64,000 bases of DNA, taken from contig NC_012587.1 in the NCBI RefSeq assembly GCF_000018545.1, positions 3,811,001 to 3,875,000 of the forward strand, read 5' to 3'. Source of the stretch: Sinorhizobium fredii NGR234. Its GTDB lineage: Bacteria; Pseudomonadota; Alphaproteobacteria; Rhizobiales; Rhizobiaceae. The notes beneath the pieces were generated by a model. That model made no database searches, had not been told where the DNA came from, and saw only the letters and a program-made list of their open reading frames with translations. Made by a program: the position numbers and the translations under genes. Numbering within the stretch: position 1 is the stretch's first letter; the number at the start of each line of letters is the position of its first letter. Positions 3,271 through 15,296 of this stretch are shown piece after piece.

Positions 3271-3356
3271 GGGTAGCGTTCTCGCTTCCGGGGACGGCGA
3301 CCTCGCGCACTGTTGTCCTTGGCTTACTCCGATCCTCGATTCAACCCCACTCCGGC

Positions 3357-3485
3357 GTCATCCTCGGGCTTGACCCGAGGATCCATGCGCAATCCAAAAA
3401 CGCTTGAAAATAGATCACGCCGGCTCGGATAAATGCCAACACCGATGCTTGTGATTGGATCCTCGGGTCAAGCCCGAGGATGACT
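3357..3485. repeat. Inward-facing pair of 19-bp palindromes (short element a-b)
   Basis: Palindrome cctcgggcttgacccgagg at 3362-3380 and its opposite orientation cctcgggtcaagcccgagg at 3461-3479. Both have GTCATC on the outside and GGATCC on the inside. The ~80 nt between them hold no ORF. The right inner flank (atgccaacaccgatgcttg and on) resembles the 5' flank of the GIY-YIG gene at 6963. The rest of 3271-3571 shows nothing else. Confidence 0.85.
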
Positions 3486-3571
3486 CGTTGAGAGGGCATC
3501 AGGGCGGCCAGAGACATAAGTCCCACGCACGAACCTCTGGAATGGCCCCAAGAGAACTCCCACTCATCTCT

Positions 3572-3997
3572 TCACGGCATGAGCCACAGCAGCGCGGCAT
3601 AACGCGCCGCCTTGCCGATCGTCACATACACAAGGAACGCGCCAAGCGGCGTGCGGAGCAGTCCGGCGGCTAGCGTCAGCGGGTCGCCGACGATCGGCAG
3701 CCAGGAGAACAGCAGCACCGGCCGGCCGTAGCGCGCGAAGATCGTCTCGGCCTTTTGCCGCGCCTGGCGCGAGACCGGAAACCAGCGCCGGTCTTCGAAG
3801 CGGATGGCGAAGCGGCCGAGCGCGAAATTGACGAGTGCGCCGAGCACATTGCCGGCAGTGGCTGCGAGAAACAGCGCCGTCCGACTCGTTTCGGCCGAAA
3901 GGGCAGCGGCAACCACCGCCGCCTCCGACAGGCCGAAGAGCAGGGTCGCGGAGAGAAAGGCGGCGCCGAAGACGCCGGCGAGGAGAGGGAAATCCAG
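3572..3997 (-). CDS. YqaA/VTT-like small membrane protein, uncertain non-ATG start
   Basis: A membrane protein of the YqaA (SNARE-associated/VTT) type. Signatures include ALVNFALGRF, RYGRPVLLFSWLPIVGDPLT and GKAARYAALL, with a hydrophobic segment at each end. The frame is open back to a TGA just upstream of 4025 but holds no ATG, GTG or TTG before a GTG at 3914-3916. Starting there would cut into the first membrane segment (LLAGVFGAAFLSATLLFGL), which is clearly conserved-looking. I therefore place the start provisionally at the CTG at 3995-3997, five bases after the stop of the SelW-like gene and preceded by AGGACT. Translational coupling is likely. The function of the family is not settled, though membrane lipid or ion handling has been proposed. 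Confidence 0.7.
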   Translation of the reverse strand: MDFPLLAGVFGAAFLSATLLFGLSEAAVVAAALSAETSRTALFLAATAGNVLGALVNFALGRFAIRFEDRRWFPVSRQARQKAETIFARYGRPVLLFSWLPIVGDPLTLAAGLLRTPLGAFLVYVTIGKAARYAALLWLMP

Positions 3998-5523: not shown

Positions 5524-6071
5524 CCAAAAGCGAGCGCGACAAGATGGCGGCCGGCGAATGGTACCGGTGCCTCGATCCGGAACTAGACGCCCTGCGCGAT
5601 CGTGCGCGCAAGGCGGTGCATCAGCACAACACCTTGCCGCCGGATGAGCGCGGCGCCATCGCCCCGGCGCTTAAGGCGCTGTTCGCCGCCGTCGCAGCGG
5701 ATTGTTTCGTCGAGGCACCGTTCCATTGCGCCTACGGCATGAACATCACGCTCGGCGCCGGCGTCTACCTGAATGCCGGCTGCACCATTCTCGACTGCGC
5801 CCCGGTCGTCATCGGCGATGGCTCGATGCTGGGCCCCGGCGTGCACATTTACTGCGCCGAACACCACAAGGATGTGGCGCTCCGCCGCGCCGGCTTGGAG
5901 ATCGACCGACCGGTGACGATCGGCAAGGACGTCTGGATCGGCGGCGGGGCGATCATCTTGCCCGGTGTGACGATCGGCGACGGGGCGATCGTCGGGGCAG
6001 GGGCGGTGGTGACGAAGGACGTGGCGGCGGGTGTGACAGTGGTGGGGAACCCGGCGCGAGTTGTTCGTTGA
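5520..6071 (+). CDS. maa: Sugar O-acetyltransferase (maltose acetyltransferase type)
   Basis: A 183-residue left-handed beta-helix acetyltransferase. It starts with the Maa N-domain (SERDKMAAGEWYRCLDPEL) and continues into hexapeptide repeats (ITLGAGVYLNAGCTILD, IGDGSMLGPGVHIYCAEHH with the catalytic His, IGKDVWIGGGAIILPGVTIG, VVTKDVAAG, GNPARVVR). Start is GTG at 5520, overlapping the TGA of the GFA gene. The ATG eight codons later would truncate the N-domain. It transfers acetyl from acetyl-CoA to a sugar hydroxyl, and the physiological sugar is unknown. Confidence 0.9.
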   Translation: MTKSERDKMAAGEWYRCLDPELDALRDRARKAVHQHNTLPPDERGAIAPALKALFAAVAADCFVEAPFHCAYGMNITLGAGVYLNAGCTILDCAPVVIGDGSMLGPGVHIYCAEHHKDVALRRAGLEIDRPVTIGKDVWIGGGAIILPGVTIGDGAIVGAGAVVTKDVAAGVTVVGNPARVVR

Positions 6072-6096
6072 ACCGGAAGAGGATGGAAGAGAGTCG

Positions 6097-6603
6097 ATGA
6101 CCGCAGCAATGATCAGGGTCCGCCCGGCACGGGCCGAGGACGTGCCGGCGCTCTGCGCCTTCCTGAACGAGATCATACGGATCGGCGGCACCACCGCCCA
6201 TGAAACCCCGTTTACCGACGAGAGCTTCGTCAGCCATTTTCTGGCCGGGCCGGGCTTCGTCAGTTGCTTCGTCGCGGAGGATGGCTCGGGTCAGCCCTGC
6301 GCCTTCCAGGGCCTGGAGCGCTCGGGCGGCCTGCCTGAAGATTGGGCGGACATCGGCACCTTCGCCCGGCCGCATGCAAAACGACCGGGTTCCGGCACGG
6401 CGCTGTTCGCCGCCACCAAAGCGCATGCCCGCGACGCCGGCCTCACGGCGATCAACGCCACGATCCGCGCCGACAACATCGCCGGCCTCGCCTATTACAG
6501 CAAGATGGGCTTTACCGACTACAAGGTCGACAAGGCGGTGCCGCTGAAGGATGGGCTTTCGGTCGATCGGATTTCGAAGCGGTATTGGCTCGGGGAAGCT
6601 TGA
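6097..6603 (+). CDS. GNAT family N-acetyltransferase, phosphinothricin-acetyltransferase-like
   Basis: A 168-residue GNAT protein with IRVRPARAEDVPAL at the N-terminus, an acetyl-CoA-binding region GTFARPHAKRPGSGTALF, and NATIRADNIAGLAYYSKMGF near the C-terminus, as in bar/pat-like members. GGAAGAGAG precedes the ATG at 6097. The acceptor substrate is unknown. It is 25 nt downstream of the acetyltransferase and may belong to the same transcription unit. Confidence 0.87.
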   Translation: MTAAMIRVRPARAEDVPALCAFLNEIIRIGGTTAHETPFTDESFVSHFLAGPGFVSCFVAEDGSGQPCAFQGLERSGGLPEDWADIGTFARPHAKRPGSGTALFAATKAHARDAGLTAINATIRADNIAGLAYYSKMGFTDYKVDKAVPLKDGLSVDRISKRYWLGEA

Positions 6604-6640
6604 GGCCAGCACGCCCTCCAGCACCTCCCTCTCCCGGTTG

Positions 6641-6669
6641 TCATCCTCGGGCTTGACCCGAGGATCCAC
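6641..6669. repeat. Palindrome copy c, left boundary of GIY-YIG element
   Basis: Core cctcgggcttgacccgagg at 6645-6663, preceded by GTCAT and followed by ATCCA. It ends about 10 bases after the stop codon side of the GIY-YIG gene at 6679 and is the mirror image of copy d at 6990-7008. Confidence 0.9.
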
Positions 6670-6678
6670 GTGCAAGCC

Positions 6679-6963
6679 TCACCAGAGTTCGAAATACAGG
6701 TCGCGCCAGTCCGGATTCATTGTCTCTATCAATTCGACCTTCCACAGTCGGTACCATCGTTTGAGCGACTTCTCGCGCTGTATGGCGGTGCCGATCTGCA
6801 GATGCTCCTCGTACCAGACGAGTCGGTTGCAGCCGTATTTCGATGCAAAACCCAGTGTCAGGCCCTCCCTGTGTTCGAAGATGCGGCTCTCGAGGTTTGA
6901 CGTCACGCCAATGTAGAGCGTTCCGCGCTTCTGATTCGTGACGATATAGACGTATCCGGCCAT
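6679..6963 (-). CDS. GIY-YIG endonuclease-domain protein bracketed by palindromes
   Basis: A 94-residue single-domain GIY-YIG protein. YVYIVTNQKRGTLYIGVTS holds the YIV/YIG motif, and LESRIFEHREG carries the catalytic Arg. LVWYEEHLQIGTAIQREKSL is typical of the stand-alone UPF0213/YhbQ-like group, with Glu in the metal-site region. It is the usual length. The only candidate start is the ATG at 6961-6963. No good ribosome site is seen, so expression may be low. The gene lies between two inverted 19-bp palindromes (6645-6663 and 6990-7008), and a decayed second N-terminus lies at 7092-7184. The enzyme presumably nicks or cuts DNA. I infer, without proof, that it relates to the spread of the flanking repeats. 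Confidence 0.88.
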   Translation of the reverse strand: MAGYVYIVTNQKRGTLYIGVTSNLESRIFEHREGLTLGFASKYGCNRLVWYEEHLQIGTAIQREKSLKRWYRLWKVELIETMNPDWRDLYFELW

Positions 6964-6985
6964 GCCGACGATGGTGATCGTGTAT

Positions 6986-7013
6986 GGATCCTCGGGTCAA
7001 GCCCGAGGATGAC
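6986..7013. repeat. Palindrome copy d, right boundary of GIY-YIG element
   Basis: Core cctcgggtcaagcccgagg at 6990-7008, about 26 bases upstream of the GIY-YIG start codon. Its outer flank (ATGACGGGGGAGGGGCG) is nearly the same as the outer flank of copy e at 7212-7230. Confidence 0.9.
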
Positions 7014-7091
7014 GGGGGAGGGGGCGTCTTTGATCTGCGGCGCTATTTAAATTATGCCGCAAACGCCTTTTGGCCAACGCCGTGCCGGCCA

Positions 7092-7184
7092 CTACTCGAG
7101 GTTGCGGCGATCGAAGTTTGAGGTCACCTCAATGTAGAGCGTTCCGCGCTTCTGATTTGTGACGATGTAGACGCATCCGGCCAT
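7092..7184 (-). pseudogene. Truncated second copy of the GIY-YIG gene (N-terminal 30 codons)
   Basis: The complement reads MAGCVYIVTNQKRGTLYIEV and on to DRRNLE before a TAG at 7092-7094. It matches the first 30 residues of the intact protein at 6963 with about seven differences, including loss of the conserved YIG Gly (to Glu). The remaining two thirds are missing. Upstream sequence, including the palindrome at 7212-7230, is also conserved with the intact copy. It is a broken remnant, not a functional gene. The interval 7014-7091 shows nothing else. Confidence 0.85.
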
Positions 7185-7204
7185 GCCGACGCATGGTGCT
7201 TGCG

Positions 7205-7233
7205 CATGGATCCTCGGGTCAAGCCCGAGGATG
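7205..7233. repeat. Palindrome copy e (right end of truncated GIY-YIG copy)
   Basis: Core cctcgggtcaagcccgagg at 7212-7230 with inner flank GCGCATGGATCC. It occupies the same position relative to the truncated GIY-YIG start as copy d does to the intact gene. No left partner is found, so the element has lost its left end. Confidence 0.9.
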
Positions 7234-7343
7234 ACGGAGGAGGGGCGAACTTGGCCGCTCATCGTGGATGAGCGATTCGCCGCAACGAAGGGGTACTTCG
7301 CGAATGCGTCCGTGTCGCAACGGGAAGCGGCGCCTCCCCACTC

Positions 7344-7376
7344 GTCATCCTCGGGCTTGACCCGAGGATCCATGCG
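7344..7376. repeat. Palindrome copy f (solitary left end, next to ccdB)
   Basis: Core cctcgggcttgacccgagg at 7349-7367, with CGTCAT before it and ATCCATGCGC after it. It lies about 16 bases beyond the stop of ccdB. Its right partner is not present. Between 7234 and 7343 I see no gene. Confidence 0.9.
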
Positions 7377-7391
7377 CAGGCACCTTTGCGC

Positions 7392-7691
7392 TCAAAAGCC
7401 CCGGAATGCGAAACCCGTGGCGGCGACTATTTTATCGTGCTGGTTTGACAGATCACCGATCAACGCGCCGAGGTCGCTGACCGAAATGGCAGCCATGAGA
7501 TGGATAGCCACGACGTACGCTTCGCCGTTGATCATTACCCGCGGGTTGAGGCCGGCCATGACGTGGGCAATGTCCGGCGCCGGGATGAGAGGCGCGACGA
7601 TCCTGGTCTTCAGGGCATCGAACAGGTCGGCCTGAATATCGACCACCAATGTTTCGCTTTGCTTCAGGCGGTAGACGTGAAAGCGCGCCAT
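7392..7691 (-). CDS. ccdB: CcdB family toxin
   Basis: A 99-residue protein matching CcdB-type gyrase poisons. The N-terminus MARFHVYRLKQSETLVVDIQ is the characteristic first strand region. LIPAPDIAHVMAGLNPRVMI and AYVVAIHLMAAIS follow, with a short GFAFRGF end. CcdB binds DNA gyrase GyrA and traps cleaved DNA unless bound by CcdA. Its ATG overlaps the TGA of ccdA (ATGA at 7691), so the antitoxin is translated first and couples toxin synthesis. This is a chromosomal copy, intact over its full length. Confidence 0.88.
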   Translation of the reverse strand: MARFHVYRLKQSETLVVDIQADLFDALKTRIVAPLIPAPDIAHVMAGLNPRVMINGEAYVVAIHLMAAISVSDLGALIGDLSNQHDKIVAATGFAFRGF

Positions 7692-7924
7692 CAGAACTGC
7701 CGCAGCTTGGCCAGCGGCAGTCCACGTTTTTCGACAAAGTCATTGGCGTCGACGATCGACTTGGCATTCTCGACGCGCCAAAGCCGTTCCTGTTCTGCCC
7801 TGACAGCCTGAGCGATGCCCTCTTCTGCCGCCCGCGAAACATTGATCTTCAGGTCGCGCGCCTGCGAAAGCAGATCGCCATCAAGCGAGAGATTGGTCGG
7901 GCGCCTTGCAATCGATCGTTTCAT
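7691..7924 (-). CDS. ccdA: CcdA family antitoxin
   Basis: A 77-residue antitoxin. The N-terminal half (RRPTNLSLDGDLLSQARDLK) fits the ribbon-helix-helix DNA-binding fold, and the C-terminal half (LWRVENAKSIVDANDFVEKR) is the CcdB-binding tail. The ATG at 7922-7924 follows GGAAAGCGAAC. It overlaps ccdB by four bases. An 8-bp inverted repeat at 7941-7963, 17 bases upstream of the start, is a plausible operator for CcdA/CcdB autoregulation. The pair is wedged between a solitary repeat end and lepA. Confidence 0.88.
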   Translation of the reverse strand: MKRSIARRPTNLSLDGDLLSQARDLKINVSRAAEEGIAQAVRAEQERLWRVENAKSIVDANDFVEKRGLPLAKLRQF

Positions 7925-7940
7925 GTTCGCTTTCCACGAA

Positions 7941-7963
7941 GATGCGCACAGTATATGCGCATC
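7941..7963 (-). promoter_or_regulatory. Inverted repeat, probable ccdAB operator
   Basis: Perfect arms GATGCGCA (7941-7948) and TGCGCATC (7956-7963) around a 7-nt spacer CAGTATA. The site sits between the ccdA start at 7924 and the end of lepA at 7982, where the ccdAB promoter must lie. Operator function is inferred. Confidence 0.55.
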
Positions 7964-7981
7964 CTCACAGGAAGAAAACAA

Positions 7982-9808
<1,827 letters not shown>

Positions 9809-15187: not shown

Positions 15188-15296
15188 GTCATCCTCGGGC
15201 TTGACCCGAGGATCCATTTACCAGCACTCAAGCTCAAAAAAGTCGGCTTGCCGGAACGCCTTGCGTGTGGATCCTCGGGTCAAGCCGAGGATGACG
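15188..15296. repeat. Inward-facing pair of palindromes (short element g-h)
   Basis: Core at 15193-15211 (cctcgggcttgacccgagg) and its mirror at 15273-15290, which has lost one C. About 60 nt lie between, without an ORF. Outer flanks read GTCAT, inner flanks GATCC. The right inner flank (ttgccggaacgccttgcg and on) again resembles the region upstream of the GIY-YIG start. Confidence 0.85.

What the first reader, a model, noticed from the sequence alone, without database searches (positions are those of the whole stretch)
6641..7233. GIY-YIG nuclease gene packaged between inverted palindromes, with a decayed sibling
An intact 94-residue GIY-YIG gene (6679-6963) lies between two mirror copies of a 19-bp palindrome, 16 and 26 bases from its ends. 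Right beside it (7092-7184) is the first 30 codons of a second copy with the same upstream flank and palindrome. This looks like a transposable or homing unit in which the palindromes are the ends and the nuclease the active gene, analogous to REP elements with RAYT transposases but with a different enzyme family. The mobility is inference.
Basis: partly seen in the sequence, partly recalled or inferred. Interest (0 to 1): 0.82.

Follow-up and report, generated by a model that had tools for sequence, protein, structure and literature searches.

The report
GIY-YIG nuclease paired with REP palindromes
A small DNA-cutting enzyme gene sits between two mirror-image copies of a short hairpin repeat that is scattered along the bacterium's chromosome, and the same pairing recurs in many other bacteria, which makes the enzyme a good candidate for the missing partner of a widespread class of bacterial repeats.

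Summary
The palindrome (TGTC/CGTC tag, 9-bp stem, 5-nt loop, CCA tail) is a CGTC-type REP with 39 places in the own genome; 28 of them form 14 inverted pairs: 12 without a gene (REPIN-like, 48-121 bp inside) and two that hold a GIY-YIG gene. In ten further full-length copies from the genus and near kin, the REPs are 99% identical to the window, third codon positions 60%, flanks 29%. A model-free test finds matching inverted repeats around GIY-YIG genes of this type in 82 of 110 loci (about 1% of 1500 shifted windows), and in 10 of 20 loci from other classes of the phylum (0 of 117). Stems differ between loci while the two flanks of one gene match, also among paralogues of one genome. Di Nocera et al. 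[quoted passage not shown] I propose that this nuclease is that partner (an analogue of RAYT, not a member). Partnership is well supported by comparison. Mobility is supported by presence at different sites in different species. Binding, cutting, movement and target duplications were not shown.

The parts
6640..7013 (-). 374-bp REP-gene-REP unit (GTC to GAC); proposed autonomous element
   Evidence: With flanks in the query, 8 of 11 unit copies of the genus start aligning within 2 bp of 6640 (rows); 18 of 59 relatives start and 22 of 59 end within 3 bp of the tags; 11 of 19 distinct loci match over the whole 374 bp
6640..6668 (+). left CGTC-type REP (tag here TGTC; stem 6643-6651/6657-6665, CCA tail facing the gene)
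   Evidence: 99% identical in ten full-length copies; ssDNA hairpin -10.1 kcal/mol, z -4.2
6673..6677 (+). subterminal CAAGC box, 4 nt inside the CCA tail
   Evidence: present with at most 1 mismatch in 31 of 37 REPs of the own genome; control 20 of 259 windows
6679..6963 (-). GIY-YIG nuclease gene, 94 aa, intact
   Evidence: PF01541; Y6, Y17, R27, H31, E64, N83 and others invariant in 53 sequences; dN/dS median 0.059; AlphaFold2 mean pLDDT 96.6
6985..7013 (-). right REP, mirror copy
7092..7191 (-). truncated second GIY-YIG copy (first 30 codons plus upstream flank)
7207..7235 (-). REP of the truncated copy
7344..7372 (+). fourth REP; sister genome G302 keeps a degraded REP at this place and lacks the rest
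   Evidence: reading of the printed gap sequence
3357..3484 (.). REPIN-like inverted REP pair without gene (cores 3360-3382 + and 3459-3481 -)
15191..15213 (+). single REP core

Best explanation
Window 6640-7013 is the gene-bearing (autonomous) member of a CGTC-REP family. Its ends are two inverted REPs, each normally with a CAAGC box just inside, and its gene encodes the dedicated partner nuclease. The short inverted REP pairs elsewhere in the genome are the non-autonomous (REPIN-like) members with the same end signal. Most likely step (inferred): the GIY-YIG protein recognises its own REP as a folded hairpin in single-stranded or cruciform DNA and nicks or cuts at the tag or tail; repair or replication then copies the REP-bounded DNA to other intergenic sites. 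Shown here by comparison: linkage, matched ends, borders near the tags, purifying selection, co-occurrence, and presence or absence at different sites. Not shown: binding, cutting, movement.
Against: 28 of 110 loci have no detectable pair, nor 30 of 90 in the further sets. Seven REP-rich genomes of the order have no hit; in the genus G325, G305, G300 and G308 carry 22, 18, 13 and 13 REPs without an intact close copy of the gene, and G314 has the gene with 1 REP, so REPs can outlive the gene or spread otherwise. Many loci also carry REPs in the other orientation (33 upstream, 30 downstream of 113). Only 18 of 59 relatives start at the tag; 36 start further in, often at the gene end. No target duplication and no nearly identical empty site was found. 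The state of G302 could be a deletion between direct REPs, and the one strain-level difference aligned (S. medicae, 162 bp) is best read as a deletion with AGCC microhomology. Counts are not corrected for phylogeny. GIY-YIG enzymes are not known to me to join DNA ends, so a host or replication step is needed.
Confidence: 0.66

Rival explanations
1. Homing-type hitch-hiker: the GIY-YIG gene is a free-standing homing nuclease that recognises REPs and inserts itself into existing REPINs; the REPs themselves are multiplied by something else.
For: Weak hits to homing endonuclease models. GIY-YIG genes lie inside inverted pairs like those without genes. REP-rich genomes without a close copy of the gene exist.
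Against: REPs, end box and gene travel as one unit, and paralogues of one genome tend to have their own REP type.
Confidence: 0.2
2. Domesticated structure-specific nuclease (Slx1-like) that trims REP hairpins or cruciforms for the host; linkage to REPs is for co-inheritance, not for spread.
For: Strong purifying selection, fold near Slx1, stable hairpins.
Against: Patchy presence (20 of 33 genomes of the genus), decayed copies, and different sites in different species fit a selfish element better than a core function.
Confidence: 0.1
3. No functional link: REPs and GIY-YIG genes simply share intergenic or repeat-rich neighbourhoods.
For: REPs cluster on the chromosome and lie between genes; REPs in both orientations surround many loci.
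Against: Shifted windows in the same loci rarely show the pair, and the two flanks match each other in a locus-specific way.
Confidence: 0.03

Closest known systems
CGTC-tagged REPs (Di Nocera et al. 2013, PMC3733652)
   Same: CGTC/TGTC tag, 8-9 bp stem beginning AT, 4-5 nt loop, CCA tail, mostly HH dimers, mainly Alphaproteobacteria (abstract, sections 6 and 14 and passages seen)
   Different: That paper found no dedicated transposase for them and holds no occurrence of 'GIY-YIG'; here a GIY-YIG gene is the recurrent partner
REP/REPIN with RAYT (REPtron)
   Same: Gene between inverted REPs, further gene-less inverted pairs with the same ends, REP type tending to be specific to each enzyme
   Different: Enzyme is GIY-YIG, not a Y1/HUH tyrosine transposase; tag is CGTC, not GTAG
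Free-standing GIY-YIG homing endonucleases (I-TevI type)
   Same: GIY-YIG catalytic fold and weak homing-nuclease family hits
   Different: 94 aa that is nearly all catalytic domain, no room for an intron in the 374-bp unit, bounded by REPs
Slx1 and UPF0213 GIY-YIG nucleases
   Different: About 20% identity in the structural alignment; REP-bounded forms of them are unknown to me (recalled)

Membership tests
CGTC-REP | CGTC/TGTC tag, 8-9 bp stem starting AT, 4-5 nt loop, CCA tail | tested here: met
   features from PMC3733652 section 6
CGTC-REP | Many copies, mostly inverted dimers | tested here: met
   39 places, 28 of them in 14 inverted pairs
RAYT / REPtron | Y1 HUH tyrosine transposase domain | tested here: not met
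   Only PF01541 found in the protein; the four Y1_Tnp genes of the genome have no such REP within 1.5 kb at up to 5 mismatches
RAYT / REPtron | GTAG-tagged REPs | tested here: not met
   Tag is CGTC/TGTC
RAYT / REPtron | Gene flanked by inverted cognate REPs | tested here: met
GIY-YIG nuclease | PF01541 domain and conserved catalytic positions | tested here: met
   (which residues are catalytic is recalled)
GIY-YIG nuclease | DNA cleavage | not testable with these tools
   no assay
Intron-borne homing endonuclease | Gene inside a self-splicing intron | tested here: not met
   No intron family among the matches in 6000-8000 at E up to 1; only about 10 and 21 bp lie between gene and REPs
Transposable element with terminal inverted repeats | Conserved unit with terminal inverted repeats at different sites | tested here: met
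Transposable element with terminal inverted repeats | Target site duplication or exact empty site | tested here: inconclusive
   Sister sites lack the unit, but flanks are only 67-79% identical at the S. kostiense site; no duplication seen

The most novel reading that the evidence does not exclude
GIY-YIG nucleases of this roughly 94-aa type are the dedicated mobilising enzymes of the whole CGTC-REP superfamily, across several classes and perhaps phyla: a class of bacterial DNA element moved by a GIY-YIG enzyme that reads DNA hairpins, with no transposase, recombinase or reverse transcriptase of its own.
Probability: 0.45. Interest if true: 0.93.

Novelty: new variant of a known kind. Interest (0 to 1): 0.84.

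Why it matters
CGTC-REPs were reported in five phyla, most of them in Alphaproteobacteria, and include Neisseria dRS3 and two Rickettsia conorii repeat families (PMC3733652, section 6). How they spread was left open in 2013, and I found no later answer in the library searched. A specific, small, expressible candidate enzyme with a defined cognate site makes the question testable at once. If right, REP-type elements evolved at least twice with unrelated nucleases, and a GIY-YIG enzyme would serve mobility outside introns.

Tried and rejected
Clean strain-level empty site: S. medicae pSymB REPs were compared. At L218, 4 records match in full and 8 lack 162 bp; I aligned two of the eight. The break lies in the hairpin loop with AGCC microhomology, beside a stretch that looks like a decayed GIY-YIG end, so I read it as a deletion, not an insertion. 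L217 comparisons were too diverged. L202 gave no empty site. One of eight records (WSM1115) was left unsearched by the size limit.

One search used the 374-bp unit alone as query, so its alignments cannot run past the tags; it is not a border test. Searches, with flanks in the query, are. The ten copies were chosen because they match the whole unit, which favours high REP identity there. One search counted the window's own row; one search leaves it out (third codon positions 60% instead of 64%, flanks 29% instead of 35-36%).

Literature: full-text searches for GIY-YIG with REP, REPIN, RAYT, palindrome, CGTC, dRS3 and COG2827 terms listed no title that links them; passages of eight papers were looked at with 'find' (PMC3733652, also abstract and two sections; PMC12306157, PMC6006769, PMC5082802, PMC9465073, PMC12455944, PMC10928387, PMC3898611). 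Several listings were capped. The library holds open-licence PMC papers only, no preprints.

Full report
What is there. The window holds a 94-codon gene (6679-6963, minus strand) with a GIY-YIG domain, between two mirror copies of a stem-loop whose 29-nt GTC...CCA forms are identical. A truncated second copy and two further palindromes follow to 7372. The genome (6.89 Mb, three contigs) has 39 places of the palindrome with up to two mismatches (40 rows, one place on both strands) and none for the reversed control. 28 of the 39 form 14 inverted pairs, CCA tails facing each other: 12 without a gene, with 48-121 bp inside, and two with 319 and 322 bp inside that hold a GIY-YIG gene (one search shows a thirteenth gene-less pair if one partner may have 3 mismatches). 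The genome's four matches of this protein make three loci: the intact gene, the truncated copy beside it with a REP on one side, and a decayed copy at C3:3694256-3694496.

What the palindrome is. Tag, stem, loop, tail and inverted pairing match the CGTC-REPs of Di Nocera et al. 2013 (PMC3733652; abstract, sections 6 and 14 and passages seen). That paper says these repeats apparently lack a dedicated transposase, and 'GIY-YIG' does not occur in it.

The unit. In one search, whose query had 640 bp of left flank, 8 of 11 unit copies begin within 2 bp of the left tag; on the right, 10 of 11 end 0-15 bp past the tag and one stops short. In one search, with 600-bp flanks, 59 of 80 named loci aligned: 18 start within 3 bp of the tag, 5 outside, 36 further in (20 of these at 36-43, where the gene ends); 22 end within 3 bp of the tag, 13 up to 13 bp past it, 24 before. 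In ten copies that match the whole unit, the REPs are 99% identical to the window, third codon positions 60%, gene-REP spacers 51-57%, 40-bp stretches outside 29%. Inside the CCA tail lies a CAAGC box: 31 of 37 REPs with at most one mismatch, control 20 of 259 windows. Gene-bearing and gene-less pairs therefore share one extended end signal.

Is the association general? (pattern-based): of 113 loci, 65 have a CGTC-REP in the expected orientation within 200 bp upstream, 53 downstream, 44 both; 33 and 30 also have one in the other orientation; background 0.010 per 200 bp per strand. (no REP model; best inverted match between the 200-bp flanks): 82 of 110 loci exceed the 99th percentile of 1500 shifted windows. 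Three loci (L063, L097, L107) were dropped; the set includes partial own-genome copies and one genome that seems held twice (L005, L085). Further sets: other orders of the class 17 of 20 (control 0 of 120), other classes of the phylum 10 of 20 (0 of 117), lower-ranked loci of the order 14 of 19 (4 of 114; one dropped); best phylum hits 12 of 20 (2 of 120; three dropped), plasmid loci 7 of 11 (3 of 66; two near-duplicate pairs). These loci were taken from the listed matches, not at random. Spirosoma and Planktothrix plasmid loci show REP-like flanks that only equal the threshold score of 14.0, so other phyla remain open. The gene itself was found in 180 of 297 genomes of the order and 134 of 348 of the phylum sample.

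Specificity. Swapping flanks between loci lowers the score from a median of 27.75 to 9.0 (400 swaps). In nine genomes with several paralogues, 22 of 33 genes have their own matching pair (median 24.5) against 18 of 98 swapped pairs (median 9.0); some paralogues of G163, G202 and G627 do share flanks. This is the pattern expected if each enzyme reads its own REP.

Co-occurrence. In 297 genomes of the order the gene goes with more CGTC-REP pattern hits (median 35 vs 15): 60 of 67 REP-rich genomes (60 or more hits) have it, 120 of 230 others. In the genus the ten genomes with a close copy (76% identity or more, my cut) have a median of 17.5 REPs, the other 23 a median of 3 (one-sided p 0.002), with clear exceptions both ways. 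Neither is corrected for phylogeny.

Mobility. Between the acetyltransferase and lepA-side anchors of the window's site, G304 has the unit in the same orientation, G306 and G319 inverted, and in G311 it lies in the acetyltransferase region; nine sisters (G300, G301, G305, G312, G315, G321, G323, G327, G328) have 14-42 bp and no REP. G302 (92.6% identical on the left) keeps one degraded REP, which could also be a deletion product. In S. kostiense (G307) the unit lies elsewhere, where 13 of 13 sister genomes fetched, the window's own included, have 36-136 bp without a unit hit or the string ATCCTCGGG. G307 has only that close copy, and the 1.5-kb stretch fetched at its lepA-side anchor has none, although no left anchor was found there. 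Flank identity at the second site is 67-79%, so borders and duplications cannot be read.

Verdict. A CGTC-REP element with its own GIY-YIG partner gene: it works like a REPtron but is not one, because enzyme family and tag differ. Partnership is well supported; mobilisation by this enzyme is the most likely reading and is untested.

Noticed in passing
G000 contig C3 (window = C3:3811001-3875000): All 39 REP places lie on C3, none on the other two contigs, and 13 of 20 collapsed sites fall in one 0.7-Mb arc (arc size chosen afterwards; 0 of 5000 random draws reach this). C3 begins at dnaA.
   Followed up: partly
window 3341-3526, 3455-3673, 7092-7373: Open frames that run through the REPs give peptides such as VILGLDPRI and MDPRVKPEDD; likely spurious ORFs made by the repeat.
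   Followed up: no
L218 (S. medicae WSM419 pSMED01 1014150-1015400): 162-bp difference between strains with a breakpoint in the REP hairpin loop and AGCC microhomology (4 full, 8 shorter records; two of the eight aligned).
   Followed up: partly
G000:C3:115351, 387885, 1433231, 1858757: Four Y1_Tnp genes of 148 aa, equal scores; two pairs share identical blocks of 623 and 616 bp, the cross-pair comparison failed at the test position. They look like an IS200-type element without these REPs.
   Followed up: partly
L226 (Planktothrix agardhii plasmid p1): The GIY-YIG gene sits between an MmeI-type restriction enzyme gene and drmA of a DISARM system.
   Followed up: no
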